Source: Mucilaginibacter lappiensis | GTDB lineage: Bacteria > Bacteroidota > Bacteroidia > Sphingobacteriales > Sphingobacteriaceae | NCBI RefSeq assembly: GCF_900155965.1 | Contig: NZ_FTMG01000024.1 | Span: forward strand, 1-64,000 | Direction of reading: 5' to 3' | Length of the DNA stretch: 64,000 nucleotides | Shown here: positions 1 through 44,620 of the stretch, in pieces | Layout: every line of letters starts with the position of its first letter | Numbering within the stretch: the stretch's first letter is position 1 | Notes under the pieces: model-generated | What the model was told of the DNA's origin: nothing | Seen by the model: the letters and a program-made list of their open reading frames with translations, nothing else | Databases searched by the model: none | Program-made: the position numbers and the translations under genes

Positions 1-1775
1 CGCAATTTAGCTTTATCCGGATAGTCATCGCCTACGGCAATGTTACGTTCTATCGTGTCGGAAAAAATAAAGCCATCCTGCATCACTACACCGCAACCAC
101 TTCGCCATGTTTTAAAGGCAATATTACCAATCTGCTGACCGCCAACTTTAATATCTCCATTTTGAGGTTCATAAAAGCGCAGCAGCAGTTTTAAGATGGT
201 TGTTTTTCCGCTCCCACTCATACCCACTATGGCCGTAGTTTTACCCTGGGGAATAACCATATCTATATTCTCCAATACAGGCTCGTTCCCGGCACCCGGA
301 TAACGAAAAGTAAGATTACTGAGGGATAAGCTTTTATTTTCGGGCAGGCTATGGCTCCATTCCTTATCTACAGGTTCCTCATCCTCCATCTGATGAATTT
401 CGTTCAAACGTTCCAGACTGATCTTGGCATCCTGAAAACCCTGAATAAAACCCAGCAATTGCTCAATGGGACTACTTAGCTGACCAACAATATACTGCAC
501 AGCAACCATAGCCCCGAGCGTTAGGTTTCCGTTAATCACCGCCTGCGCACTTAAAAAAGTAATCAGTATATTTTTGCCCTCGTTAATAAAGGTTGCTCCA
601 CCTTGCTGATATTGATTAAGCGCCAGTGTTTTTACGCTGAACTTAAATAGTCGGGCCTGGATATGCTCCCATTCCCAGCGTTTCTGCTGCTCACAGTTGT
701 TCAGTTTAATTTCCTGCATACCGCTTATCAGCTGTACAATACTGCTTTGGTTTTTGGCAGAGATTTCAAAACTTTTGTAATTAAGCGCCCTGCGCCGTTT
801 TAAAAAAATCACGATCCATGCAGTATACAGGCCGCTGCTGACCGCGAATACAAAAAATATCGTTGCATTGTAGTAAGCCAGTACTATCGAAAAAACAAGC
901 AGATTAAACATGGAGAACAGCGTACTTAATGTGGAACCGGTTAAGAAACTTTCGATCCTTTTTTGGTCGCTCATACGTTGCAGGATATCACCCGTCATTT
1001 TGGTATCAAAAAAACTCATAGGTAGTTTCATCAGTTTGATCAAGAAATCGGTGAGTATAGAAACGTTAACCCGTGTACTGATATGCAACAGTATCCACGA
1101 ACGTATAAAATCAACACTAACCCGGCCTATGATAAGAGCCGTTTGCGCAAACAGTATGATATAAATAAAATTGAGGTTGCGGGTATTGATTCCTATATCT
1201 ACAATGGACTGGGTTAAAAAAGGGATAATAAGCTGCAATAAACTACCAATGCCCAGACCAAACAACAGCTGAATAACCAGTTGCCGATAGGTAACCAGGT
1301 AACGCAACAGAAATGCCCAGCGAATTCTCGGTTCCTTTTCCTCTTCCTGCTCATAAAACTCCGGAGTAGGACTGAGGAGCATCGCGATGCCTTCCAGACT
1401 TTGTTTATCATTCAACCAGTAACTGCAAAACTCCTCTTCAGAATAACTTATCAATCCCCTGGCGGGGTCCGCCAAATAATAAGTATGGTGCTTGATACGG
1501 TACAACACTACGAAGTGATTTTGCCGCCAGTAAAGGATGGCTGGAAGTTCCGCATCTTTTAACTGTTCTACAGTAAGCTTCACACCCAGCGAACGAAAGC
1601 CGATTTTTTCCGAGGCCTCGCTCAGCCCTAGTAAGGAGATTCCTTCCCTGCTGAAACCGCAAAGCTTGCTCAGCGTCTTGATACTAAAATTCCGCCCATA
1701 ATATTTGGCTGCCATCCTCAGACAGGCAGGACCACAATCCATTGCGTCCAGTTGGGGATAGAAATTAAATTTCAT
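1..1775 (-). CDS. C39 peptidase-domain ABC transporter (bacteriocin/peptide exporter), 3' end cut by window edge
   Basis: The visible 591 residues form an exporter that would cut a double-glycine leader and pump the peptide across the inner membrane. The N-terminal C39 peptidase has the catalytic Cys in DCGPAC (C14), His87 (QNHFVVLY) and Asp103 (LADP). An ABC membrane domain with several hydrophobic stretches follows. The nucleotide-binding domain starts, with Walker A GMSGSGKTT near 205-235 and a Q-loop (VVMQDG) near 85-100. The LSGGQ signature and Walker B lie beyond base 1. The ATG at 1773-1775 overlaps the stop of the upstream glycosyltransferase by 11 bp (ATGAAATTTAA), which suggests translational coupling. 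The Gly-rich peptide gene at 11194-11379 is a plausible substrate. The family call is firm; the substrate is inferred. Confidence 0.93.
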   Translation of the reverse strand, partial: MKFNFYPQLDAMDCGPACLRMAAKYYGRNFSIKTLSKLCGFSREGISLLGLSEASEKIGFRSLGVKLTVEQLKDAELPAILYWRQNHFVVLYRIKHHTYYLADPARGLISYSEEEFCSYWLNDKQSLEGIAMLLSPTPEFYEQEEEKEPRIRWAFLLRYLVTYRQLVIQLLFGLGIGSLLQLIIPFLTQSIVDIGINTRNLNFIYIILFAQTALIIGRVSVDFIRSWILLHISTRVNVSILTDFLIKLMKLPMSFFDTKMTGDILQRMSDQKRIESFLTGSTLSTLFSMFNLLVFSIVLAYYNATIFFVFAVSSGLYTAWIVIFLKRRRALNYKSFEISAKNQSSIVQLISGMQEIKLNNCEQQKRWEWEHIQARLFKFSVKTLALNQYQQGGATFINEGKNILITFLSAQAVINGNLTLGAMVAVQYIVGQLSSPIEQLLGFIQGFQDAKISLERLNEIHQMEDEEPVDKEWSHSLPENKSLSLSNLTFRYPGAGNEPVLENIDMVIPQGKTTAIVGMSGSGKTTILKLLLRFYEPQNGDIKVGGQQIGNIAFKTWRSGCGVVMQDGFIFSDTIERNIAVGDDYPDKAKL

Positions 1776-2628
1776 ATATATGTTCGGGTTTCGAATGAAT
1801 AATCCGGCTGGGTGTTATACGGAAATGACCCGGGACGACTCCTTTTAACCGCTTTCGTTGGTATCGCTTTTTTAAATAGATCAGGTGATACAGCAGCACT
1901 TCATACTTTTTACGGTAATATAAGCGCCCTTCATGCCAGTGCAGCTTGCCGGGAACCCCTTCGATGATAAAGAGGTCAAAATGGGGCTTGATATAACCAG
2001 CAGCCTCCATTTTTTTCACCACATGCATCATGCTTTCTACTTCGGTATGGATGTTGTAGTAAGCCTTTCCCTCAGAAAAATCGTCATGAGAGAAATTGGT
2101 TTCATCAAAACAATAATGACGCTCATCAGTAAACACTTTTCGGTAGTCTTTGCTATGCTCATATAACCGGTTAACCTTCTCGATATTGCGGTAAACCAAA
2201 AAGCATCCGGTGAGCCAGTCTGGCCGTACACTGATCAAGTCATAATTTTCCAGGAGCTCACTGCTCAGGAAATCCCTGATATTTCCGAAAATAATATCCA
2301 GATCGGTGTGCCCCCAAAAATCATATGAGCTCAGCAACCTGGCAAATATCACCCCGTAAGCGGGTTTGAAATCACACATTTTATAGCCGTAAGTAATATT
2401 CACCTCCATTCCAAGCTGTTCAGCGGCCAACTGACTGACCTCATCAAGCGTCTTCTGGATCAGCCTCACATTGGAAGGCAGTGGAATCAAGGATTCCGTG
2501 TCATCTGTAACCACAATAAAATCAACGTCCGGGTTATAGCGGCAGGAATGTACAAAATAGGCGAAATACCAGGGCAGTTTACCAAAAAAGCAGGTCAGTA
2601 ACGCGATAGAGTAGTTTTCCTTTAGCAT
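1765..2628 (-). CDS. DUF6625-like putative glycosyltransferase
   Basis: A 287-aa protein without a signal peptide, presumably cytoplasmic. It resembles the DUF6625-type proteins found in polysaccharide clusters: an N-terminal ALLTCFFG strand, TDD near residue 41, and the central motif FWGHTDLDIIFGN (residues 104-116). D109 and D111 of that motif look like a GT-A DxD metal/nucleotide-sugar site. Its stop codon overlaps the start of the C39 ABC exporter by 11 bp, so the two are almost certainly co-translated and likely act on the same pathway. Donor and acceptor sugars cannot be read from the sequence. It could modify either a glycan or the exported peptide. Confidence 0.7.
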   Translation of the reverse strand: MLKENYSIALLTCFFGKLPWYFAYFVHSCRYNPDVDFIVVTDDTESLIPLPSNVRLIQKTLDEVSQLAAEQLGMEVNITYGYKMCDFKPAYGVIFARLLSSYDFWGHTDLDIIFGNIRDFLSSELLENYDLISVRPDWLTGCFLVYRNIEKVNRLYEHSKDYRKVFTDERHYCFDETNFSHDDFSEGKAYYNIHTEVESMMHVVKKMEAAGYIKPHFDLFIIEGVPGKLHWHEGRLYYRKKYEVLLYHLIYLKKRYQRKRLKGVVPGHFRITPSRIIHSKPEHIYEI

Positions 2629-2983
2629 AATGCGAGTAAGGCTTTAATTGGTTCAAGGCCGCCGTCGCAAATTATGTATTTTTTTACGAAGCGCTTATAA
2701 GTGTAATATTATTTTGGTACGACATCAATCCGTTAAAACACCTACCTTTATATGTAAAAACGCCAACACTTATAATCTCTAGCTTTTAATTTACCTGGTA
2801 TAAACACGTTAAATCACTGGAGGTCTTTCAACAACATCTAATGTGCCATGCATTTATGGCACACTATACAATAGCTATTATCACATAATTACTTAGGAAT
2901 AGACGGATAATGTCTTTATCTTTAATTAATCTAAAATTCAAAGTACGATGTTTTCACTACAGCTCATCGGTTTACATTAATGG
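2629..2983. other. Intergenic region with a short inverted repeat
   Basis: An AT-rich 355-bp gap between two minus-strand glycosyltransferase genes. No small leader-peptide ORF was recognised on either strand. The one structured element is the inverted repeat TGTGCCAT / ATGGCACA at 2842-2849 and 2856-2863 (8-bp stem, 6-nt loop). It could be an operator or a weak transcript hairpin and has no T tract. Confidence 0.4.
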
Positions 2984-4054
2984 TTAAAGAATCGCATTTA
3001 GCAAAGATTGGAAACAGTTTTCCGCCGAATAATTTGCCTCTACATAAGCCCTGGCATTTCCTACCAGTTTTTTTCTCAATTTGTAATTACCTATAAGCAA
3101 ATTCAATTGCTGAGCAAAGGCTGTTCCGTCTCCGACCAGAAAAGCATGATCAATTGCAGACTCGATCCCTCTTGCCCCATGAGTCGTGGTTACCAGTGGC
3201 AGACCGTTGGCTAGTGCTTCTATATTTTTAATTTTAAGTCCGGCCCCGAACCTGACTGGGTTGATCATAATATCGGAATCGTTATAAATGCTGTCCCGGT
3301 CCGGCCAGAATCCCATTACCTTAATATCATTTCTTTCCTGGATATCCAATTCGTAGCCTACCGTTCCATAAATAAACAACTGAACCTGGTGCTGGTCGGT
3401 AATGGCTGGCCAGCATTCTCTGATGAACCAGTTGATCGCATCTCGATTCGGTATATAGGCACTAGCTACGAATGCGATTTTTTCAGCCTTTTTCCGAAGT
3501 TTTCGAGTGACTGGGGGCACAGGATGGGCACATAACAGCGCTTTTTCAATGCCAATCACATTTTTTATCAGTTCCTGATCAGGCTTGCAGAGCAGCATTA
3601 CATAGTCATATAGTTTAAATAACTTCATTTCATCATCGGATGAAAGTTCATACAATGCGCCGGCAAAACCATATTGCGAAAATTCAGCCCCCCTTTCGCT
3701 TACGATATCGTGTGCGTCCAGAATAATCTGGGCTTCAAATTGCAGGTAGTTTAAGAAATAGCTGCTGTGTACGTATTCTATGATGACCGTATCAAATGAC
3801 TCGTCCTTTAAATGCTTTTGCAGTCGCCGACCATAGCCAGCCGAACTAAGGATTTTTTTATGCTCCAGAATCAAAAATTCTGCGGCGTAATTAAGGGACA
3901 AAAAGTGTTCAATGTCCAAAGGTGCAGGACCAGTCGCCACCACAGTTAACTTAACCATTGTACTCAAAAATCTGATTAACTCCTCTATCCGAATGCGGTC
4001 TCCGGAACATTTTTCCCAAAATTTTACATCCGTTAAAAGGAGGATTTTTTTCAT
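2984..4054 (-). CDS. Glycosyltransferase family 4-like protein
   Basis: A 356-aa GT-B fold glycosyltransferase. The N-terminus MKKILLLTDVKFW with CSGDRIRIEEL is an acceptor-side Rossmann start. The C-terminal half has the GT4-type donor site, with FGAGLKIKNIEALANGLPL around residues 265-290; the Glu of EALANG is the usual catalytic/nucleotide-binding acid. It probably transfers a sugar from a nucleotide or lipid donor in the cytoplasm. It is divergently transcribed from the GT61 gene at 4208 with a 153-bp gap holding both promoters. A shortened, frameshifted paralog lies at 7338-8085, so this GT4 copy is the intact one. Substrate unknown. Confidence 0.82.
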   Translation of the reverse strand: MKKILLLTDVKFWEKCSGDRIRIEELIRFLSTMVKLTVVATGPAPLDIEHFLSLNYAAEFLILEHKKILSSAGYGRRLQKHLKDESFDTVIIEYVHSSYFLNYLQFEAQIILDAHDIVSERGAEFSQYGFAGALYELSSDDEMKLFKLYDYVMLLCKPDQELIKNVIGIEKALLCAHPVPPVTRKLRKKAEKIAFVASAYIPNRDAINWFIRECWPAITDQHQVQLFIYGTVGYELDIQERNDIKVMGFWPDRDSIYNDSDIMINPVRFGAGLKIKNIEALANGLPLVTTTHGARGIESAIDHAFLVGDGTAFAQQLNLLIGNYKLRKKLVGNARAYVEANYSAENCFQSLLNAIL

Positions 4055-4207
4055 GAAGAGTTAGATTTCGGACAGTTTAACTGAAAGGGAAATAATCCGT
4101 TTGTAGTTTATTGAATAAAAATATAAAAATGTCGGCATAAATGTTAAATTAATTTATAATATTTATGCTGGACAATCCCCAAGAAGTCTGCTAAACTAAA
4201 CCTTGTT

Positions 4208-5245
4208 ATGAATAAGGAAATCACTGTTTCACTTCCAAAAAACATTTCAGCAAAAGAGCTGCCTTTGTTTAAGCCTTTTTTAACCTACCAGCTGTCACCA
4301 CAAAAGGTTAAAACATTTAACAACGTTTTTGTAACCAATTCCGGTTATTGCCTCAATGACCAGGGGCTCATCAAAGAATCACATCACGATCATCCGCACC
4401 AAATCGCCGATTACCATAATGAGGCTGCGCACTACTATTACGCAGTTAAGGATCATCCGGAACTATTAATTGAACTGGACGATGAGCAGACCTATCTTCT
4501 GATCCACCATCCCTGGTACAACTATTACCATTGGCTGATGGAATCCATCTTCCGGGCATGGATGGTCAGGAAAAAAAAAGACAAAATGATATTGCTATTG
4601 CCGGACTATTACCAAAATTCCGATTTTATCATGGGCACACTGGAACCCTTCCGGTTTGAAAATATCTATTACATACCAGCGTATCATAGCTTGATGGTTC
4701 GGAATCTCTGCTTGCCACAGATCAAAGCGAAAGTGGATTCTTACGATTACAAAATGATGGCAGAGGTAAGGCAATTCTATTTAGACTATGTCAACCGGGT
4801 TAAAAAATTAAATATTGATAAAGGAGAACGGATTTACATCAGTCGTAAAAAAGCGCAGCGAAAAAAAGTGATGAATGAGGATGAAATTGAACCAATACTC
4901 CTGAAGCATAATTTCACTTTATTGAATAATGAAGATTATTCCTTTTTGGAACAAATTGCTATTTATGCTAACGCGAAGTACCTTGTCTCGATTCATGGAT
5001 CAGGGCTGACGAATATGCTGTTTATGAAAACCGGCAGTAAACTATTGGAATTTCATAAAGAACAAACCAACGAAAAAGATTGGCATAGCAAAGCATTTTG
5101 GTATATGGCAGAAGCGCTCGGTTTTGATTATTACCAGCAAATATGTATACCAACGGATCCTGAAGACGACTATTTTAACGCTAATTTCATTGTCGATCCT
5201 GAACTATTGGACCGCAATTTAGCCTTGCTTTTCGCGGATGAATAA
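4208..5245 (+). CDS. Glycosyltransferase family 61 (DUF563) protein
   Basis: A 345-aa protein with DUF563/GT61 hallmarks: HHPWYNYYHWLMES at residues 100-113 (conserved H108, W109, E112), the basic RIYISRKKA stretch near 208, and the family motif SIHGSGLTNMLFM near 260-273, then LEFHKEQ. No signal peptide or membrane segment is apparent. It is about 50-55% identical by eye to the inverted paralog at 6054-7100. It is followed 36 bp later by a nucleotidyltransferase on the same strand, so the two probably form a short operon that activates and transfers a sugar. Acceptor unknown; bacterial GT61 members are usually in surface-polysaccharide clusters. Confidence 0.82.
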   Translation: MNKEITVSLPKNISAKELPLFKPFLTYQLSPQKVKTFNNVFVTNSGYCLNDQGLIKESHHDHPHQIADYHNEAAHYYYAVKDHPELLIELDDEQTYLLIHHPWYNYYHWLMESIFRAWMVRKKKDKMILLLPDYYQNSDFIMGTLEPFRFENIYYIPAYHSLMVRNLCLPQIKAKVDSYDYKMMAEVRQFYLDYVNRVKKLNIDKGERIYISRKKAQRKKVMNEDEIEPILLKHNFTLLNNEDYSFLEQIAIYANAKYLVSIHGSGLTNMLFMKTGSKLLEFHKEQTNEKDWHSKAFWYMAEALGFDYYQQICIPTDPEDDYFNANFIVDPELLDRNLALLFADE

Positions 5246-5281
5246 TATCTATCGTCAATTTAAAAGTAATAGTAACCGAAT

Positions 5282-6031
5282 ATGAAAAAAAAGCATTATG
5301 GCTTATTACCGGCGGCAGGAATGGCGATTAGAATGCGCCCGTTCCGGTATCCCAAAGAGCTATTACCGGTTCATTTTCACCCGGACAAAACAACTGAATT
5401 TATCCGCCCCAAGTTATTGATTGAATACGCGTTAGAAGCATTTACAGTTGCCGGTATAGACCAAACCTATATTATTGTACCTGAATGGAAACCAGAAATC
5501 ATGCGTTATCTGGAGGATGGCAGACAATTCGGCCATCATATCTCCTACCTTTATAACAGCAAAGCGCTCGGACTTGCAGATGCACTCTTATCTGCTTATC
5601 CCTGGTTAAAAGGGGAAACTACCTGTTTTGCAATGCCTGACACGGTGTTTTCTCCGACAAATGCGTTTGAGATTTTACTGGAGAAATTAGAACTGGAGAA
5701 AGCCGATCTCATTTTAGGTGTTTTTCCGACGCTGGAAGCATCACACTTTGCCCCTGTAGAGTTTAACAATGAACAGAAAGTACTGAATATATGGGAGAAG
5801 CCGGTGATACCGCTGTTTGACAACACCTGGGGTATCGCCGTTTGGAAAGAAAAATTCTGGGATTTCTTTCATAAGCGTTCTGGTTCTCTGAAAGCCGGAG
5901 TATCGGTCACTGAAATCTTTGATCAGGCGGCCAAAAGCGGATTGAAGGTCTCCTGCGTTTATTTTGAGGACGGATGGTATAAAGATGTTGGCAGGATCGA
6001 TCATATATCGGTGATGACAAACGACAGGTAG
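5282..6031 (+). CDS. Sugar-1-phosphate nucleotidyltransferase family protein
   Basis: A 249-aa protein of the NTP_transferase family, which makes nucleotide-sugar donors from NTP and sugar-1-phosphate. The N-terminal signature is AAGMAIRMRPFRYPKELLPV (residues 11-30), matching the GxGxRxxP...PK pattern; K25 is the conserved lysine. A PD pair in AMPDTVF near residue 119 is the likely metal-binding Asp, and EKPVIP follows near 177. The glycines of the loop are partly replaced (MAIRM instead of G-TR), so activity should not be assumed. It ends 22 bp from the convergent GT61 gene and follows another GT61 gene, so it probably supplies their donor. The exact sugar is not deducible. Confidence 0.78.
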   Translation: MKKKHYGLLPAAGMAIRMRPFRYPKELLPVHFHPDKTTEFIRPKLLIEYALEAFTVAGIDQTYIIVPEWKPEIMRYLEDGRQFGHHISYLYNSKALGLADALLSAYPWLKGETTCFAMPDTVFSPTNAFEILLEKLELEKADLILGVFPTLEASHFAPVEFNNEQKVLNIWEKPVIPLFDNTWGIAVWKEKFWDFFHKRSGSLKAGVSVTEIFDQAAKSGLKVSCVYFEDGWYKDVGRIDHISVMTNDR

Positions 6032-6053
6032 GGAAATGCCTAGTATATATTCT

Positions 6054-7100
6054 TCAAATTAGTTTACCGTCAAGCATTTGCAAAAGATTCTGTTCCAGCA
6101 ATACGGTATCTACAATCAGGTTGCCGACAAAAATATCAGCCGCGGGATCTTCGGGCGGGCAGATCTGGTGAAAATAACGATGCCCCAAAGCGTCGGCCAT
6201 ATACCAAAAAATCTGGCTGTGCCAATCGTAGCTGGTGGTTTGCTGCTTATGAAATTCCAGAATGCTGGACCCTTCCGGCATAAATAGCATATTCGTCAGT
6301 CCTGATCCATGAATCGACACTAGATACCTGGCATGCGCATGAATGGCGACCTGTTCAAAAAATCCGTGGTCTTCATTACAAAGCACGATAAAGTCATACT
6401 TCTTCATAATGTCTACCACCTCTTCCTCATTGATCACATGCCGTCTGCCGGCTTTTCTCCGGCTGACATATATACGTTCTCCAAAATTCGTGTTTAGCCT
6501 TTTTTTATCAGATACATGTCTCCGGTAGAATGAGCTGACCTCTTTCAAAGCCACACGGTCATATCCTTCCATTTTTGTTTTGATCTGAGGCACACACAGC
6601 GAATTTAACAGTACACTTTTTTGATCGGGTATAAAAAAAATTTTCTTTAAAGCAAAAGGTTCCAATGAAGCACGCACATATTCACTACCCTGATATTTTT
6701 CCGGTAATAATAAAATCAAACTGTCTAACTGTTCTTTCACCATCCATAGGCGGAAAAGCGATTCGCATATCCAGTGATAATACATAAACCAAGGATGGTG
6801 GATCAACAGGTAGGTCTGTTCATCGTCCAGTTCAATCAGCTGTTGCGGGTTTACCAGGGCGTTCTCGTAATAACCTGACGCTTCCTTTAAATAATCCGAA
6901 AGTTGACCGGGGTAATCGTGATAACATTCTTTGGCTAACCCTTTATTCGTCAAACAGAAACCTGAATGTGTGACAAAAGCGTTATTCAATCTGCGAACTT
7001 TCAGGGGAGCTAAGCGGTAAGTCAAAAACGGCAGGAACAAACCCTCGTCTTCTTTTATCATATTTACAGGTGGCAATACGGTGACTATATTCTGGCGCAT
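6054..7100 (-). CDS. Glycosyltransferase family 61 (DUF563) protein, second copy
   Basis: A 348-aa paralog of the GT61 protein at 4208-5245, on the opposite strand. It has the same landmarks: HHPWFMYYHWICES near residue 103, RIYVSRRKAGRR near 212, SIHGSGLTNMLFM near 262, and LEFHKQQT. It converges with the nucleotidyltransferase gene (22-bp gap). The two GT61 copies plus two GT4 copies suggest a duplicated gene pair that has diverged to make two linkages. The gene itself looks intact, unlike the neighbouring GT4 copy. The promoter should lie between 7101 and 7240, just before a 124-bp repeat. Confidence 0.82.
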   Translation of the reverse strand: MRQNIVTVLPPVNMIKEDEGLFLPFLTYRLAPLKVRRLNNAFVTHSGFCLTNKGLAKECYHDYPGQLSDYLKEASGYYENALVNPQQLIELDDEQTYLLIHHPWFMYYHWICESLFRLWMVKEQLDSLILLLPEKYQGSEYVRASLEPFALKKIFFIPDQKSVLLNSLCVPQIKTKMEGYDRVALKEVSSFYRRHVSDKKRLNTNFGERIYVSRRKAGRRHVINEEEVVDIMKKYDFIVLCNEDHGFFEQVAIHAHARYLVSIHGSGLTNMLFMPEGSSILEFHKQQTTSYDWHSQIFWYMADALGHRYFHQICPPEDPAADIFVGNLIVDTVLLEQNLLQMLDGKLI

Positions 7101-7240
7101 AGTTTAAAAGTATCGTTTTATCTATAATAGATTTTATAAAAAAGCATTTTAAATATAAATAATATATCACTTCAATCGCCAATTGCGACCAGCAAATTCC
7201 CATTTACCGATCAACCACCGGCCGGGATGACAGGGTGGGT

Positions 7241-7364
7241 ATTCCGAAGCCATTAACTATCTCATTCCGGAAATAGCATACAGTTGATCCATTACACTTT
7301 GACCATCCTAATTTGTTTATTATCAATTGCGATTTACCTAACTGACTACACAACTTGGTGCTCC
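7241..7364. repeat. 124-bp direct repeat, copy 1
   Basis: This stretch matches 11770-11893 in the same orientation over 124 bp without gaps and with seven or eight substitutions (about 94% identity by eye). Homology of the GT4-like pseudogene to its paralog stops exactly where this repeat begins (7364), so the repeat marks a recombination or insertion junction. Differences between copies include several amino-acid changes in the only long open frame, so it does not look like a conserved coding sequence. No transposase or terminal inverted repeats were found. Origin unknown. Confidence 0.8.
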
Positions 7365-8085
7365 TTCTATCACAAGTCCGTCACATACAGTACCGTAAAT
7401 AGATAACCTCACATCATATTTTAACAAAATACCTGGCCAACAGTTATTTATAAAAAAATAACTTGCATCTTTATTGGGTAAATATGCACTTGCGATAAAA
7501 ACAATATTTCCAACGTCCTTTCTTGTCGTATGTTTAAACGGAATGATTGGATGTGGACATAATAATATTTTATTAGCTCCTATTGCCAATTTTATTTTTT
7601 CAAAATCTGGCACACAAAGCATCTTCACATAGTCGTAAAGATTATGCATATCAAATTCAGATTCTCGTGTTAATTCAAATAAAGCCCCTTGGAAATCGAA
7701 TTTTTTAAAATCGTTAATGCGATCACTGATAATATCATGAGCATCAAATATAATTAACGCATCACTCTTCATAAGAAAATTTAAAAAGTAGCTACTATGA
7801 ATGTACTCGATAACGATTGCATCAAAATGCCTATCCTTTAAAAAAGCTTTAAGTCGTTTCCCATATCCATTAGAATTTAAATATTTCTCATATTCGGGAA
7901 CATAGAATTCAGCTTTATAGTCCCTCCTCAAAAATTCCTCAATATGGTTAGGAGCCGGGCCTGTAATCACCACTGTTAGTTGCACATGGTGTTGAAGATA
8001 CCCAATTAACGAAGCAATACGCATTCTATTACCAGAGCACATCTCCCCCCAAACTTACATCAGTTATAAGCAGTAGTTTTTTCAT
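7338..8085 (-). pseudogene. Truncated, frameshifted GT4-like glycosyltransferase
   Basis: A paralog of the GT4 protein at 2984-4054 with shared landmarks CSGNRMRIASLI, VVITGPAPNHIEEFL, FDAHDIISDR and LCPHPIIPF. The natural ATG is at 8083-8085 (MKKLLLITDVS). A run of six G on the coding strand (8045-8050) shifts the frame; with five G the reading continues into EMCSGNRM. At the other end, similarity stops at IYGTV, near residue 225 of about 356, where the 124-bp repeat begins, and the last few residues before the stop come from the repeat. The whole donor-binding C-terminal half is missing, so a working enzyme is unlikely. The G-run could be phase variation or a sequencing error, but the 3' truncation is real in this sequence. 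Confidence 0.78.
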
Positions 8086-8124
8086 CTATTTCTACTACCA
8101 TTTTTTAATTAACAACGCGGTAAT

Positions 8125-10749
8125 TTATTCTGAAACTATAATTTTCCCATACTTAAAACCTAAACCAGAGTTTAAATCCGTCCCTTCTATTAAAATATTA
8201 TACATGTTTTTTTTGTCTCCACAGTAAAAACTTATTGTGGCTTTACCATCCAAACCGGTCATTATATTCGGTTCCCAGTCTAATGTTGAACGTAAATCAG
8301 GTAACGTGTGTATAGTATTTATTTGTGTATAACGTGGTTTGTAAAAAAATTTTGCCTGACTTAATTTTAATGGTTTGTAAAAAAATACACCAGGAGTATT
8401 ATTTAAAATAGGACCGTGTCCTGAACGAGTTGTTATTTCTATGTACCCAACCTCTGCTGGCGATACCTGTGCTGTTCCAATATATCTTTGGGTAAACTTT
8501 GATGAAGAATTAACTTCTATTCCTTTAATATCTTCTGCGTTCAGGGATCTTAAATAATTTGTTATATCCAGAAAACTAATGTTATAATTTATCAATCCAA
8601 TTGATATTCCGTCAACAACAAGTTTAATCGGCTTATCATTTACAAAATACCATGGCATATTTAGAATACCATTTACTTGGAACTTTTCTGGGATATTATT
8701 CGCATCATGAAGGAAGCTCCATAATTTTATATTTTCAACTGATTTTCCAACAAATGTACCTTCTCTAAATCCTTTAATTTTTTTACTTAGTATATTTAAT
8801 AGACTTGTCTTACCTTCTTTTTCTATATCTAATTCATTTAGAACTATATCTGCATTTCCTGGACCATTTAGGTTTTGTGAGCCTTTCACAATCATTTTTG
8901 CTTTTATTTTAACCTCTTTAAGCATATGTCCGTTTACTCCCAAAAGTGACAGATCGCTTAGCATTCTGTTGTTTCTAGCTACAGTTATTAATGCAGTATC
9001 AGGAGGGATACCATCTAGGTTAATTGGTTTAGGCACATTAATTCTTGGAGGAGGCATGTCGTCCATTACGATTTCCTCGTTAAGATTTTTATTATGACGG
9101 TCATTAGCTTGAAGTATAAAAAGAGGATTCTCTATAGTAGGAAGGTTCTCAAAACTAAAATGCCCAACATGATTCGTAAAAGTATCTCTTAATAACACGG
9201 GCGGAGTGCTTGACAATAGAGTAACACTGGCACCAATAACAGGCTCTTTCGTGCCACGTAAGACCTTACCTTTTACAGAAAAATTATCCTCTGGTAAATA
9301 AACCATTTGATTTTTATTTTTCGGAAAATCATAACTTACCCAACCTTGGGTAAGTAATAGGTTATCCAAGTCTATTTTATTTTTAGTGGCATCTTTAAAA
9401 TAATACTCAGGTTGTTCTAAGTTACCAGCAAGTTCAGAAGCCAAAAAGATGTGTGTAACTATATTATCTTGAAGTGTGTCAATATTTACTTTTTCATTAT
9501 CAGTTATTGACAATGAAAAATTTCCTACAATTGGTTTATTTTCTTTATCGGTAACTAAAATTTGCAAAGAAACACTATCATGGGAAGAATATTTTTTTTT
9601 ATCTGTCGATAGACGAATATTAAGATTATCCAGTTTCTCGATAAATACTAATCTTTCATTAACGGGATGACCATTTGTATTCATGAGTATCAAATGTGCA
9701 ATACCCGTCGGAAACAAGTTTTTTGATATGTACTTTCTAAGTACTCCCTTTCTAAAACTCAATAGAGCCGCGTAGCATATAACATTTCTTGCCTTCCCTA
9801 TTAAAAAATAACTATTGCCGTTTTTTATTATGTCATCAGTTGCGGCAATTGAAATACCAATAGAATCTTGGTTAGTAATGTTATCAATTCTTAACATTGT
9901 TCCGGAGTCCGTTACTTTACAAAATGAATATTCTTTTACAATATCACCAGGTAGTTTTACTCTTGCGCGATAATGCTCTCCAGGCTTAACATCCATATCA
10001 AAACTCCCCATACCAAGGTGCTGTGAAAAGAAACTAAGAATTTCTTTGTTTCTACTATCTATTATTACTCCCGATATATCAACCCCTTTTCCATCTACGC
10101 CCAAAGCTTTAAATCCAATATGTGATCGTTGACCAGATATTAAGCTTCCTCCTTCCGGTAAAAATTGAACATCTGTACTCAAAATATCCTCACTAAATTT
10201 GGCACCTTCTTTTTTATCCGAATTTTTAGGTGACTGTCTATCAACTACATTTAATAATTTAGGATTTATTATTTTGTCATCCGCAATAAATAATCGCTTA
10301 TAAAAAAAACAATCCGATCCAAAGTTGCGCATCCAGGTTGTAAAAGCACGGAGAGTATAATTACCAGACTCGAAATCATTTAGAGCAATGTCTCCAATAC
10401 ATAAGCCTTGCTTAACGGGTAACCGAAATTGCCTAAACTCTTTGGTCTTATTATTAATTATATCAACATAAATGATTCCACTTTTAGCTGACAGCGCCAG
10501 CGTAGGAGCATGAAAAAGATAGGCTTTGAACCATACGGTATCCCCAACGGCATAGTTTGGCTTATCTAACTGTATATATAATTTTTCAGCTGGAAAATTA
10601 TGGGAGATAGTATCTTCATATTCTTTGAACTTTAATAACTTTTCGGTTAAAACTGCAGATTGTCCATAAGATCTTAATTGCAACGAAAATAAAAACAAGA
10701 AAAATAAACTATATTGAATGTTAATAAAACATAAATACTTCAACCTCAT
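8125..10749 (-). CDS. MG2-domain protein with carboxypeptidase-regulatory and TonB-plug-like domains
   Basis: An 874-aa secreted or envelope protein. Residues 1-30 are a signal peptide ending RSYGQ. An MG2-type macroglobulin domain follows (EKLYIQLDKPNYAVGDTVWFKAYLF pattern from about residue 55). There are further beta-rich domains, a carboxypeptidase-regulatory/CNA-B-like fold near 485-560 (VKGKVLRGTKEPVIGASV), then a TonB-receptor plug-like segment near 640-775 ending GYIEITTRSG. No 22-strand barrel follows, so it is not a complete TonB receptor. Such MG2/plug proteins are widespread in Bacteroidota and of unknown function, sometimes near peptide exporters. It lies about 440 bp downstream of the small peptide gene on the same strand, within the repeat-bounded block. 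Possible roles are immunity, secretion or surface display; none is shown. Confidence 0.75.
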   Translation of the reverse strand: MRLKYLCFINIQYSLFFLFLFSLQLRSYGQSAVLTEKLLKFKEYEDTISHNFPAEKLYIQLDKPNYAVGDTVWFKAYLFHAPTLALSAKSGIIYVDIINNKTKEFRQFRLPVKQGLCIGDIALNDFESGNYTLRAFTTWMRNFGSDCFFYKRLFIADDKIINPKLLNVVDRQSPKNSDKKEGAKFSEDILSTDVQFLPEGGSLISGQRSHIGFKALGVDGKGVDISGVIIDSRNKEILSFFSQHLGMGSFDMDVKPGEHYRARVKLPGDIVKEYSFCKVTDSGTMLRIDNITNQDSIGISIAATDDIIKNGNSYFLIGKARNVICYAALLSFRKGVLRKYISKNLFPTGIAHLILMNTNGHPVNERLVFIEKLDNLNIRLSTDKKKYSSHDSVSLQILVTDKENKPIVGNFSLSITDNEKVNIDTLQDNIVTHIFLASELAGNLEQPEYYFKDATKNKIDLDNLLLTQGWVSYDFPKNKNQMVYLPEDNFSVKGKVLRGTKEPVIGASVTLLSSTPPVLLRDTFTNHVGHFSFENLPTIENPLFILQANDRHNKNLNEEIVMDDMPPPRINVPKPINLDGIPPDTALITVARNNRMLSDLSLLGVNGHMLKEVKIKAKMIVKGSQNLNGPGNADIVLNELDIEKEGKTSLLNILSKKIKGFREGTFVGKSVENIKLWSFLHDANNIPEKFQVNGILNMPWYFVNDKPIKLVVDGISIGLINYNISFLDITNYLRSLNAEDIKGIEVNSSSKFTQRYIGTAQVSPAEVGYIEITTRSGHGPILNNTPGVFFYKPLKLSQAKFFYKPRYTQINTIHTLPDLRSTLDWEPNIMTGLDGKATISFYCGDKKNMYNILIEGTDLNSGLGFKYGKIIVSE

Positions 10750-10818
10750 AGTTTACAAATTAAACAACCACATTAAATAAATTTCAATGCCAATTACATG
10801 AACTAACCATTTGCTCCT

Positions 10819-10847
10819 CAATTAATTGTCATCGTGACAATTAATTG
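10819..10847. promoter_or_regulatory. Perfect 13-bp inverted repeat upstream of the MG2 gene
   Basis: CAATTAATTGTCA (10819-10831) is followed by TCG and its exact reverse complement (10835-10847). It ends 70 bp before the MG2 start codon. A three-base loop and no T tract argue against an intrinsic terminator, so an operator or an RNA-level control element is more likely. The binding factor is unknown. Confidence 0.45.
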
Positions 10848-11145
10848 ATAATTATAAATTTTTCTATTATTATGTTACGAGAGCATCTACTGAGATATGA
10901 AATTGAGCTTTTATATTAAGGCTGATTAATGCCTAACTTCAGTTTTACAGGCAAACTTGTCTATAGTTTGTATAAATTTTTAATAATTCAATTTCTTAAA
11001 CTTCAAGATCTTTCCTATTTAAGAATGAAATCGTAATAAAATGCTAAAACGGTAAATTATTTTAGCTAAATAAATTCAACAATGGGAATTTTTTATGTAA
11101 CTCCATTGCTCACTTTTTAATAAACCTTATTAGCTATCTAAGGAC

Positions 11146-11183
11146 ATGGAATAATGGAGAAAAACCTCTCTCCATTATTCCAT
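11146..11183 (-). terminator. 15-bp perfect hairpin just after the small peptide gene
   Basis: ATGGAATAATGGAGA (11146-11160) pairs perfectly with TCTCCATTATTCCAT (11169-11183) across an 8-nt loop. It starts 11 bp past the peptide stop codon. A long U tract is missing on the minus-strand side, so it could be an attenuator or an mRNA-stabilising 3' structure that keeps peptide transcript high relative to the MG2 gene, rather than a full terminator. Confidence 0.5.
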
Positions 11184-11193
11184 ATATTATAAT

Positions 11194-11379
11194 TTAACAG
11201 CAAGATGCTCCGGTGTTACTCCAACAAAAACCACCCGCCCCAGAATTATTATTAGGGCAATATTGATAACCGCCACTACCGCCACCACCACCACCAGAAC
11301 TACCAGCCATGATTTTTTTCATTTCAATTTTGCTGAGTACATTTTTAATGTTTGCAAAACTCATTTTTTTTGTTTTCAT
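11194..11379 (-). CDS. Small Gly-rich secreted peptide precursor with double-glycine-type leader
   Basis: A 61-aa peptide. The first ~26 residues are a charged leader, with LSKIEMKKIMAG resembling the Bacteroidota natural-product leader pattern LS..EMK.I.GG that C39 peptidases cleave; here the cleavage dipeptide would be AG. The predicted core of ~35 residues starts SSGGGGGGSGG and holds four cysteines (C41, C52, C60, C61) plus aromatic residues. No lanthionine, radical-SAM or graspetide enzyme is nearby, so disulfides or glycosylation are the possible modifications. A C39 exporter and several glycosyltransferases lie within 10 kb. A strong hairpin follows the stop. Exporter pairing and function are inferred; the leader and composition are seen directly. 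Confidence 0.68.
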   Translation of the reverse strand: MKTKKMSFANIKNVLSKIEMKKIMAGSSGGGGGGSGGYQYCPNNNSGAGGFCWSNTGASCC

Positions 11380-11769
11380 AAAATTAAATCCAAGTAAAAA
11401 ATTAGTTTAGTTATCACGTAACAAACGGCGCGCGTAGAAGATTTATGCATCTTAAAACATCGGTCAGAGTTTGTATTTTAGATCCAACCGCTAATTGTTT
11501 AACTAGTTTCCATACAGAAAAAGGCACATAAGTACATATAGTTAACATAAATATCAGCTTATAAAATAGACCTCCTGAAAGTTTAATAGTGAATACGTGT
11601 TTAAAATTGTTAGAACTAATGTAATTATAAACTATCTATTAATCAAATGAAATATAAATTTACTCTATATTTAGCCCTACATTTAAAATCTGAACTTTAA
11701 CCAATTATATAATGATATAGTCCCAACTTATTTATCATGGGTAAAAAAATCTCAGCTTCGCTACTGGAT
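11380..11769. other. AT-rich upstream region of the peptide gene
   Basis: This gap presumably contains the promoter of the peptide gene. I see no hairpin, small leader-type ORF or known operator in it. A minus-strand open frame runs through 11697-11942, but it lies largely in the 124-bp repeat, whose two copies differ by amino-acid-changing substitutions, so it is not called a gene. Confidence 0.35.
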
Positions 11770-11893
11770 ATTCCGAAGCTATTAACCATCTCATTCCGGA
11801 AATAGCATACAGTTGATCCGTAATACTTTGACCATCTTAATTTGTTTATTATCAATTGCGATTTACCTAACTGACTACACAACTCGGTGCTCC
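11770..11893. repeat. 124-bp direct repeat, copy 2
   Basis: The partner of 7241-7364, same orientation, ~94% identical without gaps. Together the copies bound a 4.4-kb block holding the broken GT4 gene, the MG2 protein and the small peptide. Beyond this copy lies decayed coding sequence, so the block may have been inserted into, or recombined next to, an older gene. Confidence 0.8.
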
Positions 11894-23473: not shown

Positions 23474-24949
23474 TTAATTAAGCTGAGTTAATGTAAATTG
23501 CTCATTGGTAGCACTTAAATCACACCCATACTGTATCACAGGCGTACCATCGGCAGTTGACGCGCCCTGAACATTAAGGCACTTGCCGCTAAGTGCCGAT
23601 TTGATATTATAGTTACTACCGTTAGGTACAATTTGCCATTGTTGATTGGTTCCGCCGCCATATACCCATTGGATAATGGAAGCGCCATCGGCGGTAGAAG
23701 CACCGCTAACATCAAATCCCTTACTCGAAGCACTGGCCGGCGAAATACGATAATACCCCCCGCCCACATCTGTAATAATGAATTGTTGGTTGCTTCCACC
23801 AGAATATGTCCATTGCTGCACAAGAGCGCCATCAGCAGTAGAAGCACCAGTAATGTCGAGAGACTTGCCACTGTGTACGGGCGTGATGCGATAGGTTTTA
23901 CCGGAAACAATAGCAGCATATCCACGTAATTTATTACGTATGTAATTCCCGGTTTCGGATAACTGCGATGTTGTCCAGCCACCACTTGACGACGCGCCGG
24001 GTAGAAGCATTGAACACAGCTCACCTGATTTGTCTGTCACCGACCAATTGACCCAGCTTATCTTGTTGATTTCCAAAAAGCTTAGCCAGGCTTCCCATTC
24101 CGTATAATTGATAGAGCCGCTGCCCGATGCTTCGGTGCCGCTGCTTTCCGTTACAAATATCGGAATATTTTTGCCGATGGCATAGGTGCAATCATCCCTT
24201 AACCATTGGCCGTGACTGGCTGCGTAATAGTGCACCGAGTACATGATGTTTGAATACCCGGTTATCGGCGAATCGGCCACATCGCGTATGTCCTGATCCC
24301 AGCTAGGGCTTCCTACAATAATAATATTGTTGGGGTCATATTGCCGTATGGCAGCAATAACAGCCTGCGCGTATGATTTTACCTGTGGCCACGTTACGGT
24401 GTTATCTGGCTCATTAATAATCTCGTACAATATATTTGGATTACCAACATACTGCTGTGCCATCGACGAGAAGAATGCTACGGCTTGGGTTTGCAGCAAA
24501 GGTGAGGCATGCCAGTCAATGATAACATAAGTACCCTTGGCAATGGCTGCATTCACAACGGTTTTGAGCAGTGTAAGCTGGGTGGGATCATTAAGGTATC
24601 CGGGGGTGACATCCACACTCATGGATGCCCTGACCACATCTATCTTAAAATCATCGGTAAGCCAGTTTACCACATTGGCGTTCCAAAATTGTGGCCACCA
24701 GCCGCTCCAACCCTCGCTGAGTCCGCGCAAGCTAATGGTCGCATTACTTTGGCTTTTCAAATACCGACCCGATACAGACAACTGTCCGTATTTTGCGACG
24801 GCCGAACCAGCGGGAGCAGCCATGGTGCTTAGTTTTGAGGAGGAGGAAGCGTTGTTTTCATTTGACTGGATAATGTTTGCCGATTTTTTACAGGCAAAAA
24901 TGATCATACAGAAGAAAACTGCACTTAATAATAATGTGATTTTTTTCAT
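23474..24949 (-). CDS. GH5 family endoglucanase with C-terminal RICIN (beta-trefoil) domain, lipoprotein
   Basis: A 491-aa protein. ATG at 24947-24949 is preferred because it directly begins the lipoprotein signal (MKKITLLLSA..IIFAC, Cys20); a longer frame upstream has no signal. The GH5 TIM barrel spans about 50-365, with acid/base E180 in EIINEPD and nucleophile E268 in FVTESSG. Residues ~371-491 form a beta-trefoil lectin domain of three ~46-residue repeats, each with GxSxDxxGAST-like and NQQF/NQQW/NEQF signatures. It probably attacks xyloglucan or glucan backbones at the cell surface, with the lectin module holding substrate. It lies downstream of GH3, separated by a hairpin. Confidence 0.88.
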   Translation of the reverse strand: MKKITLLLSAVFFCMIIFACKKSANIIQSNENNASSSSKLSTMAAPAGSAVAKYGQLSVSGRYLKSQSNATISLRGLSEGWSGWWPQFWNANVVNWLTDDFKIDVVRASMSVDVTPGYLNDPTQLTLLKTVVNAAIAKGTYVIIDWHASPLLQTQAVAFFSSMAQQYVGNPNILYEIINEPDNTVTWPQVKSYAQAVIAAIRQYDPNNIIIVGSPSWDQDIRDVADSPITGYSNIMYSVHYYAASHGQWLRDDCTYAIGKNIPIFVTESSGTEASGSGSINYTEWEAWLSFLEINKISWVNWSVTDKSGELCSMLLPGASSSGGWTTSQLSETGNYIRNKLRGYAAIVSGKTYRITPVHSGKSLDITGASTADGALVQQWTYSGGSNQQFIITDVGGGYYRISPASASSKGFDVSGASTADGASIIQWVYGGGTNQQWQIVPNGSNYNIKSALSGKCLNVQGASTADGTPVIQYGCDLSATNEQFTLTQLN

Positions 24950-25106
24950 AATTGGTTTGTTTTTAATTATTAATTGGTTGATGAAATTATAATTAAAGCA
25001 GCCAGGCGGCTGATAGTTGGTGCGCAGCAGGATTGTTGATGCAGGAGGGTATTTATTCATAAATGTATTATATAGGTAAGGGATGACAGAATCGTTTTTT
25101 GACCAC

Positions 25107-25142
25107 AAAACCAGGCTAAACAAAGTCATTTAACCTGGTTTT
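25107..25142. terminator. Hairpin between GH3 and GH5 genes
   Basis: AAAACCAGG (25107-25115) pairs perfectly with CCTGGTTTT (25134-25142), with an extra TAAA/TTTA inside. The T run on both strands gives a bidirectional terminator shape. It starts 10 bp past the GH3 stop, so GH5 may be partly uncoupled from the upstream transcript. Confidence 0.6.
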
Positions 25143-25152
25143 GATTTGATTT

Positions 25153-27312: not shown

Positions 27313-27351
27313 AAATATTGATTTGATTTTAATTGTGGCGTTTGTATTGAA

Positions 27352-31888: not shown

Positions 31889-31906
31889 ATCTTATACCTG
31901 ACCCTA

Positions 31907-33637: not shown

Positions 33638-33734
33638 AGATAAATGATGTATTGAGCAGAATTTCTGCCGGTAAAAAGAGAAGCTATTTTATAGTATTGA
33701 TAAATTTGGAATTATGGAAACTTAAAATAATGCC

Positions 33735-33756
33735 GGGGCCCGTTATGTAAGGCCCC
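33735..33756 (-). terminator. Hairpin between SGBP and first GH51-like gene
   Basis: GGGGCC (33735-33740) and GGCCCC (33751-33756) form a short GC-only stem with a 10-nt loop, within the 150-bp gap after the SGBP stop. No T run follows closely on the minus strand, so it is at most an attenuator separating the SusCD-SGBP genes from the enzymes. Confidence 0.4.
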
Positions 33757-33787
33757 AGACATTAACTTGGTCAACTAAAACTATCTT

Positions 33788-35014: not shown

Positions 35015-35052
35015 GATTTATTTTTAAGAATTATTAAATGATTCTAAATGGT

Positions 35053-36627: not shown

Positions 36628-36637
36628 AATCATAATT

Positions 36638-44578: not shown

Positions 44579-44620
44579 AGAGCTAACAATAAATATTAAA
44601 GAGGCAATAAATAACAATTG

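What the first reader, a model, noticed from the sequence alone, without database searches (positions are those of the whole stretch)
1..11379. Possible undescribed export system for a Gly-rich, four-Cys peptide with associated glycosyltransferases
Seen: a C39 exporter gene overlaps a DUF6625-like glycosyltransferase gene. Further GT4, GT61 and nucleotidyltransferase genes follow, then an MG2/plug-like envelope protein and a 61-aa precursor with leader LSKIEMKKIMAG and a glycine/cysteine-rich core. Known: C39 domains cleave double-glycine-type leaders, and Bacteroidota precursors carry EMKxIxGG leaders. Inference: the exporter handles this peptide, and one or more glycosyltransferases may glycosylate the core (Ser or Cys), as in glycocins. 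No lanthionine or radical-SAM enzyme is present. The alternative is that the glycosyltransferases serve a surface polysaccharide and only share the neighbourhood.
Basis: partly seen in the sequence, partly recalled or inferred. Interest (0 to 1): 0.62.

Follow-up and report, generated by a model that had tools for sequence, protein, structure and literature searches.

The report
Exported Cys-rich peptide with dedicated glycosyltransferases
A Bacteroidota bacterium carries a gene cluster that probably attaches sugars to a small disulfide-rich secreted peptide, and related clusters in other genera carry peptides that look like the cystine-knot peptides of animals and plants.

Summary
In detail: a C39-ABC exporter (cut by the contig start), DUF6625, GT4, two GT61s, a nucleotidyltransferase, an MG2-type protein and a 61-aa four-Cys precursor with leader ...EMKKIMAG|SSGG. 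Comparative data back both the exporter-peptide and the glycosyltransferase-peptide link. Of 399 family genomes, 15 have a strong match to this leader; 13 of them hold DUF6625, against 19 of the other 384. Of 56 loci with a Cys-rich precursor near a C39 exporter or a C39-like/VKOR/thioredoxin fusion, DUF6625 is in 9 of 9 AG|S loci and 2 of 47 others. Exporters up to 89% identical to those of AG|S clusters occur with GG leaders and no hit to six glycosyltransferase families, so the enzymes track the peptide rather than the exporter. DUF6625 models as a GT-A glycosyltransferase with an intact DxD motif. Some related precursors match cystine-knot peptides. Best reading: an exported, disulfide-rich, probably Ser-glycosylated peptide, unlike glycocins in its enzymes and unlike bacteroidetocins in its leader. 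Glycosylation is inferred, not shown, and the Ser-Gly rule was not replicated on positives. The window copy is partly decayed (broken GT4 duplicate, no adjacent oxidase gene).

The parts
3..1775 (-). C39-peptidase ABC exporter, 591 aa held, C-terminus beyond the contig start
   Evidence: Pfam Peptidase_C39 1.4e-33, ABC_membrane, ABC_tran; closest solved structure the bacteriocin transporter of entries 4s0f/4ry2, 3.8e-82; catalytic Gln/Cys/His/Asp present
1765..2628 (-). DUF6625 protein, predicted GT-A glycosyltransferase with WGHTDLD motif, overlapping the exporter by 11 bases
   Evidence: Pfam 4.3e-64; W105, D109 and D111 invariant in 33 sequences; AlphaFold2 pLDDT 93; VIA-align Z 12.8 to a bacterial GT6
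2984..4054 (-). GT4-type glycosyltransferase (Glyco_trans_1_4)
   Evidence: Pfam 1e-19; GT4 genes in 7 of 9 AG|S loci and 1 of 47 others
4208..5245 (+). GT61 glycosyltransferase
   Evidence: Pfam 9.7e-26; solved relatives with E below 0.001 are POMGNT2 and EOGT, over about 100 residues
5282..6031 (+). sugar nucleotidyltransferase, may supply the activated sugar (inference)
   Evidence: Pfam NTP_transferase 3.6e-17
6054..7100 (-). second GT61 glycosyltransferase, 183 of 334 aligned residues identical to the first
   Evidence: Pfam 9.3e-27
7338..8042 (-). broken duplicate of the GT4 gene (frame change near the start, end lost)
   Evidence: 116 of 217 aligned residues identical to the GT4; the start of the protein lies in another frame; its end overlaps the 129-nt repeat 7236-7364
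8125..10749 (-). MG2 / CarboxypepD-type envelope protein, co-directional with and next to the precursor
   Evidence: Pfam MG2 6.2e-06 and CarboxypepD_reg 8.1e-06, both under the curated cut-off; similar proteins near precursors in L023, L042, L043, L045, L048
11144..11185 (-). 19-bp hairpin (two G-U pairs) just after the peptide stop codon, probable attenuator or terminator
   Evidence: -32 kcal/mol for the 111-nt stretch folded, z -3.87, 0 of 200 shuffles as good
11194..11379 (-). precursor peptide, 61 aa: 26-aa leader ending IMAG, core SSGGGGGGSGGYQYCPNNNSGAGGFCWSNTGASCC (cleavage site inferred)

Best explanation
The cluster makes and exports a disulfide-rich peptide that is probably glycosylated. 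Shown by sequence: the precursor has a conserved leader with L, E, M, I, A and G at -12, -8, -7, -4, -2 and -1, the positions that C39 proteases read (recalled). The exporter has an intact C39 active site. DUF6625 is predicted to have a GT-A fold and keeps a DxD motif. Inferred: in the cytoplasm DUF6625, together with GT61 and GT4, builds a short glycan on Ser of the N-terminal Ser-Gly stretch of the core (S27, S28 or S35), or on another core Ser. The exporter then cuts after MAG and passes the core out with an HlyD partner (beyond the contig end here). Disulfides form in the periplasm; in the relatives probably by a membrane fusion of a catalytically dead C39-like domain, which could hold the leader, with VKOR and thioredoxin. 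In this genome such a gene was found only on another contig. The likely role is a secreted toxin-like or signalling peptide; this last step is the weakest.
For: Genome level: strong matches (37 bits or more) to the AG|S leader model in 15 of 399 family genomes. DUF6625 is in 13 of those 15 and in 19 of the other 384 (p 4e-14; 12 of 15 and p 2e-12 if the 31-residue fragment in G264 is not counted). The two without it are G056, whose leader reads GG|S, and G144, whose precursors lie on a 3-kb contig. Locus level: 111 loci examined, 56 with a precursor within 10 kb of a C39 exporter or VKOR fusion. DUF6625 is in 9 of 9 AG|S loci and 2 of 47 others (p 7e-9), GT61 in 6 of 9 and 1 of 47, GT4 in 7 of 9 and 1 of 47. 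Exporters of AG|S loci are up to 89% identical to exporters of GG loci without a hit to the six GT families modelled, so the GTs follow the precursor type. Ser-Gly within the first 8 core residues goes with a GT: 16 of 21 SG loci, 4 of 35 others (p 1.4e-6); 6 of 6 GT25 loci have it. DUF6625 fold. The GT61 resembles protein O-glycosyltransferases. DUF6625 also stands beside the exporter in a locus with ATP-grasp-like and SPASM proteins (L053) and in one with a protein that I take by eye for a radical-SAM enzyme (L026; not scanned).
Against: No product has been seen. The SG-GT rule was found in the data it was tested on. The replication set (20 new loci, 16 with precursors) held no AG|S and no GT25 locus, so it tested only negatives: 0 of 2 SG and 0 of 14 other loci had a GT near a precursor; L218 has a GT61 but no precursor found. 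Exceptions in the whole set: SG without GT in L120, L153, L178, L210, L212; GT without SG in L025, L126, L163, L168. 'GT' means hits to six families that I modelled from a few sequences; other GTs were not sought. On the exporter tree without the DUF6625-selected loci only 2 supported contrasts remain (both agree). AG|S precursors also occur without DUF6625 in the fetched stretch (L103, L106, L107, L110; L105 has only the fragment). Of 12 further leader-positive genomes 7 have a close GT61 and 5 do not. Distant DUF6625 proteins (35% identity or less) lie among other glycosyltransferase-type genes (L028-L032). The window cluster has no adjacent VKOR fusion and one broken GT.
Confidence: 0.6

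Rival explanations
1. The glycosyltransferases make a surface glycan that protects the producer from its own peptide (immunity), and the peptide itself is only disulfide-bonded.
For: GT genes are tied to one precursor type, which self-protection would also give; no immunity gene was recognised among the nine window genes; the MG2 protein is of envelope type.
Against: The tie is to the start of the core: 29 of 34 precursors listed, from loci found mostly through DUF6625, have AG followed by S (one locus is listed twice), while AG without S also occurs without DUF6625 (L118). Ser-Gly in the core goes with GT genes. Immunity predicts neither. No flippase, polymerase or polysaccharide export gene was hit among the nine window genes.
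Confidence: 0.17
2. The glycosyltransferases belong to an ordinary polysaccharide locus and are neighbours by chance.
For: GT4, GT61 and NTP transferases are common in such loci (recalled). Of the 34 DUF6625 places, I fetched the surroundings of 25 (not counting the fragment in L105); 7 of these 25 are not near a C39 exporter or VKOR fusion (my count).
Against: 18 of those 25 places are near one, though part of them were fetched through the leader. DUF6625 tracks the AG|S leader across genomes. GT61s with 49% identity or more to the window's occur in 4 of 151 genomes, the same 4 all having a VKOR fusion gene. 14 arbitrary stretches of 20 kb hold no DUF6625, GT61 or GT25 hit.
Confidence: 0.08
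3. AG|S is just another cleavage motif, and DUF6625 and the GTs travel with it in one mobile cassette without a functional link.
For: The clusters look mobile: patchy, duplicated, with lone precursors (L103, L105-L107, L110). Independent contrasts are few in the subset not chosen by DUF6625.
Against: In the tree of 48 exporters AG|S and DUF6625 change the same way in 7 of 8 supported contrasts and never the opposite way (p 0.016; part of these loci were found through DUF6625). The link is also seen in Rhodohalobacter, Cyclobacteriaceae, Niastella and Algoriphagus loci (found through DUF6625), which share precursor, exporter, HlyD, VKOR fusion and DUF6625 but not GT61/GT4.
Confidence: 0.15

Closest known systems
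Bacteroidetocins (class IIf bacteriocins; PMC6671954, sections 7 and 14 and passages read)
   Same: Bacteroidota, double-glycine-type leader, four Cys core, C39-type ABC exporter, and a thiol oxidoreductase gene in most regions.
   Different: Leader 15-16 aa there, 26 aa here; the text search of that paper found no 'glycosyl'; its five-TM protein was not found among the nine window genes; the core here is Gly-rich and 35 aa.
Glycocins (for example glycocin F type and enterocin F4-9; PMC12457901 and PMC8620827 seen as search listing with the start of the abstract)
   Same: Exported Cys-rich peptides with a C39 exporter and, here by inference, sugars on the core.
   Different: Glycocins, as I recall, use a dedicated GT2-type enzyme; here DUF6625 (GT6/GT8-like GT-A by fold), GT61 and GT4 stand in its place.
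Animal and plant inhibitor-cystine-knot peptides (agelenin, pi-hexatoxin-Hi1a and the like)
   Same: Eight precursors of the same leader family (L050 three, L051 two, L047, L042, L043) have C x6 C x5-7 CC x4 C xn C, and their profile matches such chains (best E 5.6e-05).
   Different: The window peptide has four Cys and not this spacing; common descent with animal peptides is not implied; the model is of low confidence.

Membership tests
C39-exported double-glycine-type peptide system | Exporter with N-terminal catalytic C39 domain | tested here: met
   Pfam 1.4e-33; Gln, Cys, His and Asp intact in all 61 aligned exporters, window included
C39-exported double-glycine-type peptide system | Leader with hydrophobic/E pattern ending GG, GA or GS (recalled) | tested here: inconclusive
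   Pattern present, but it ends AG, not GG; close exporters take GG leaders; cleavage not tested
Glycocin | Adjacent glycosyltransferase that modifies the core | tested here: inconclusive
   GT genes adjacent and co-occurring; modification not testable here
Glycocin | GT2-type (SunS-like) peptide glycosyltransferase (definition recalled) | tested here: not met
   No GT2 hit over the cut-off among nine window genes (the one Glycos_transf_2 hit, on the nucleotidyltransferase, is below it); the GTs are DUF6625, GT4, GT61
Bacteroidetocin (class IIf) | Leader of 15-16 aa ending GG | tested here: not met
   Leader 26 aa ending AG
Bacteroidetocin (class IIf) | Four Cys (at least two in distant members), mature peptide 42-48 aa | tested here: inconclusive
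   Four Cys, but core 35 aa
Bacteroidetocin (class IIf) | Thiol oxidoreductase gene in the region (most regions) | tested here: not met
   None found on the window's contig; the only VKOR fusion found in the genome is on C15. In 8 of the 9 counted AG|S relatives one is adjacent
Lanthipeptide or radical-SAM RiPP | LanB/LanC/LanM or radical-SAM maturase in the cluster | tested here: not met
   None among the nine window genes
GT-A glycosyltransferase (DUF6625) | GT-A fold and DxD motif | tested here: met
   VIA-align Z 12.8, rmsd 3.4 over 189 residues to 4ayl; Foldseek 6.4e-06 with TM-score 0.43; invariant D109 x D111. Fold is predicted, activity untested
Inhibitor cystine knot | Six Cys with the knot spacing | tested here: not met
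   Window peptide has four Cys; spacing met only in relatives

The most novel reading that the evidence does not exclude
Bacteroidota hold a widespread class of secreted, disulfide-oxidised mini-proteins, including cystine-knot types, that carry O-glycans on an N-terminal Ser-Gly tail. The tail is built by different enzyme families (DUF6625 + GT61 + GT4, or GT25 pairs, or perhaps DUF6734) recruited separately to one shared C39/VKOR export platform: a bacterial counterpart of the glycosylated Cys-rich modules of animals.
Probability: 0.35. Interest if true: 0.8.

Novelty: new variant of a known kind. Interest (0 to 1): 0.62.

Why it matters
DUF6625 is a Pfam family of unknown function, and no paper of the held library names it; this gives it a predicted fold, a likely activity and a likely substrate. 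If the peptide is glycosylated, the cluster supplies peptide glycosyltransferases unrelated to those of glycocins and a genetic handle on sugar-bearing, cystine-knot-like peptides of bacteria. Near-identical exporters with and without glycosyltransferases form a natural experiment that can be tested directly.

Tried and rejected
Rejected: chance neighbourhood; lanthipeptide or radical-SAM maturation among the nine window genes; the window peptide as a cystine knot (four Cys only).

Weak or failed: a consensus promoter search TTTG-N17-23-TANNTTTG gave no match in the window where 4.3 were expected by chance, so it says nothing. The structure model of a cystine-knot precursor was poor (pLDDT 59.8); its Foldseek matches, mostly knottins by name, have E 0.12 or worse. 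The class-wide VKOR search gave 14 of 257 genomes, 9 of them outside the family, and was not followed. Literature: judged by title and start of abstract, showed no paper on glycosyltransferases with C39/VKOR peptide clusters in Bacteroidota; only the held open-access library was searched. PMC10352776 was seen as passages only; it mentions glycosyltransferases in two Bacteroidales RiPP clusters, which I did not compare.

Selection and drops behind: 111 loci (L023-L025, L027, L038, L099-L138, L140-L185, L200-L219). L023, L024, L025 and L027 were first fetched through DUF6625 but are also hits; L131 and L132 were fetched for DUF6625 and have no precursor near an anchor, so they are not among the 56. 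Loci (L040-L060) were left out. Four ORFs were judged not to be precursors (L129, L155, L185, L213). L102 (overlap filter) and L113 (precursor frame-shifted) were lost though both have the AG|S leader and DUF6625; the window itself was not counted. AG|S loci without exporter or VKOR fusion (L103, L105, L106, L107, L110) fall outside the count. The replication was planned with 60 loci; 20 could be fetched, those most like the query VKOR.
Full report
What is there. The window is bases 1-64000 of contig C12 (67,671 bases) of a 6.8-Mb genome. From 11.4 kb down to base 1 the cluster reads: precursor (11194-11379 -), MG2/CarboxypepD-type protein (8125-10749 -), broken GT4 copy (7338-8042 -), GT61 (6054-7100 -), nucleotidyltransferase (5282-6031 +), GT61 (4208-5245 +), GT4 (2984-4054 -), DUF6625 (1765-2628 -), C39-ABC exporter (3-1775 -, cut by the contig end). 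DUF6625 and exporter overlap by 11 bases. The exporter's closest solved relative is the bacteriocin transporter of entries 4s0f/4ry2 (3.8e-82), and its C39 catalytic residues are intact. The two GT61s share 183 of 334 aligned residues. The second GT4 shares 116 of 217 with the first, has a frame change near its start, and its end runs into a 129-nt repeat that recurs at 11765-11893 (94%). A 19-bp hairpin follows the peptide stop codon (z -3.87), as would suit a gene transcribed more than the genes after it (inference).

The same set elsewhere. Loci found with DUF6625 and with a 28-residue leader model (A1) repeat the arrangement. One order, in L023 and L099, is GT61, GT4, VKOR fusion, precursor, MG2-type gene, DUF6625, exporter, HlyD; other Mucilaginibacter and Pedobacter loci hold the same genes in changed order. 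More distant loci from Niastella, a Cyclobacteriaceae MAG, Rhodohalobacter and Algoriphagus keep precursors, DUF6625, exporter, HlyD and VKOR fusion but showed no GT61 or GT4 relative. The fusion protein joins a C39-like domain, VKOR and thioredoxin. In an alignment of 107 of them with 61 exporters the catalytic Cys is not among the eight commonest residues (102 of 107 sequences) and the His is kept in 2, so it may bind leaders without cutting them and oxidise the Cys (inference). One such gene was found in the window's genome, on C15.

The glycosyltransferase link. Two tests do not start from DUF6625. By genome: 15 of 399 family genomes have a strong match to the AG|S leader model; DUF6625 is in 13 of these and 19 of the other 384 (in G264 only a 31-residue fragment). 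The two without are G056 (leader reads GG|S) and G144 (precursors on a 3-kb contig). By locus: of 111 loci, 56 have a precursor near an exporter or VKOR fusion; 9 of 9 AG|S loci and 2 of 47 others have DUF6625 (p 7e-9), with GT61 in 6 of 9 versus 1 of 47 and GT4 in 7 of 9 versus 1 of 47. L102 and L113, lost to filters, also have the AG|S leader and DUF6625. On a tree of 48 exporters AG|S and DUF6625 change together in 7 of 8 supported contrasts (p 0.016); without the loci found through DUF6625 only 2 supported contrasts remain, both agreeing. Exporters up to 89% identical stand on either side of the divide. The row of that tree most like the window's exporter (L208, 495 of 589 residues identical) has a GG leader and no GT hit. 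This argues that the AG|S core start is not an exporter adaptation and that the GTs are tied to the peptide.

The Ser-Gly pattern. Most GG-leader loci had no hit to the six GT families I modelled, but some carry GT25 genes, often in pairs, and then every such locus with precursors (6 of 6) has Ser-Gly within the first 8 core residues. Overall 16 of 21 SG loci and 4 of 35 others have a GT. On the tree, SG and GT change the same way in about 6 of 9 supported contrasts, with 0.2 the other way (median p 0.03); without the DUF6625-selected loci 3 contrasts remain. L027, with GT25, a DXD-type GT, DUF6625 and a VKOR fusion, encodes two proteins with long Ser-Gly repeats. The pattern was noticed in these data. 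The replication written down beforehand reached 20 loci, 16 with precursors; none had AG|S or GT25, and its 2 SG loci had no GT. It supports only the negative side.

What the enzymes are. DUF6625, modelled at pLDDT 93, matches GT-A enzymes: Foldseek 6.4e-06 but TM-score 0.43 to blood-group GT6 enzymes, with xyloside xylosyltransferase and glycogenin further down; VIA-align Z 12.8 to a bacterial GT6. W105, D109 and D111 are invariant over 33 sequences. The window GT61 has POMGNT2 and EOGT as its only solved relatives with E below 0.001, over about 100 residues; both are protein O-glycosylation enzymes by name. GT61s at 49% identity or more occur in 4 of 151 family genomes, all with a VKOR fusion gene, and in 7 of 12 further leader-positive genomes. 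Neither sugar nor acceptor can be read from this.

What the peptides are. Cores in these loci vary widely. Eight precursors from Pedobacter (L050, L051), Mucilaginibacter (L047, L042) and MAG SZAS-82 (L043) share C x6 C x5-7 CC x4 C xn C. Their profile gives three PDB matches with E below 0.01, a remipede double-ICK peptide (5.6e-05), pi-hexatoxin-Hi1a (1e-04) and agelenin (0.002), and most weaker ones are knottins by name. The window peptide (C41, C52, C60, C61) does not have this spacing. Near precursors stand MG2-type proteins, thioredoxin or redoxin proteins, or DUF5128 propellers, whose role is open.

Known systems. Bacteroidetocins are the nearest described system by platform, glycocins by presumed chemistry; for both, a defining feature was tested and not met (membership table). 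I file this as a new variant of exported disulfide-rich peptide systems. No paper of the held library names DUF6625, and the searches listed none on such clusters with glycosyltransferases. Activity, sugar and glycosylation itself remain untested.

Noticed in passing
window 7236-7364 and 11765-11893: A 129-nt direct repeat (94%) flanks the MG2-precursor part of the cluster; possibly a relic of a mobile element or of the duplication.
   Followed up: partly
L033 10245-12422 (G000:C11 end): A second exporter, 540 of 591 residues identical to the window's, lies at the end of contig C11 beside a peroxidase gene; no DUF6625 relative in the 12.4 kb fetched.
   Followed up: partly
L027 6196-6867 and 7013-7432 (-): Proteins with LTKDELK/LSKAELK-type N-termini and long (Ser-Gly)n stretches beside GT25, a DXD-type GT, a VKOR fusion and DUF6625.
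   Followed up: partly
L114 10328-11995, L056 5956-7596, L025 10625-11935: DUF6734 (PF20508) proteins of unknown function near precursors; possibly a further glycosyltransferase family.
   Followed up: no
L053 5146-10834: DUF6625 and C39 exporter beside an ATP-grasp (MvdD-like) and a SPASM protein, with a small AG|S-type ORF before them.
   Followed up: partly
L054 3275-9944: Three Cys-rich precursors in Rhodohalobacter, each followed by a gene of similar size; the two that I scanned are DUF5128 propeller proteins. Looks like precursor-partner pairs.
   Followed up: no
window 23474-39802 and 40460-44617: Ordinary glycan-use genes among those scanned: GH5 with ricin-type lectin, GH3, GH2, a TonB receptor, and a hybrid two-component regulator.
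   Followed up: no
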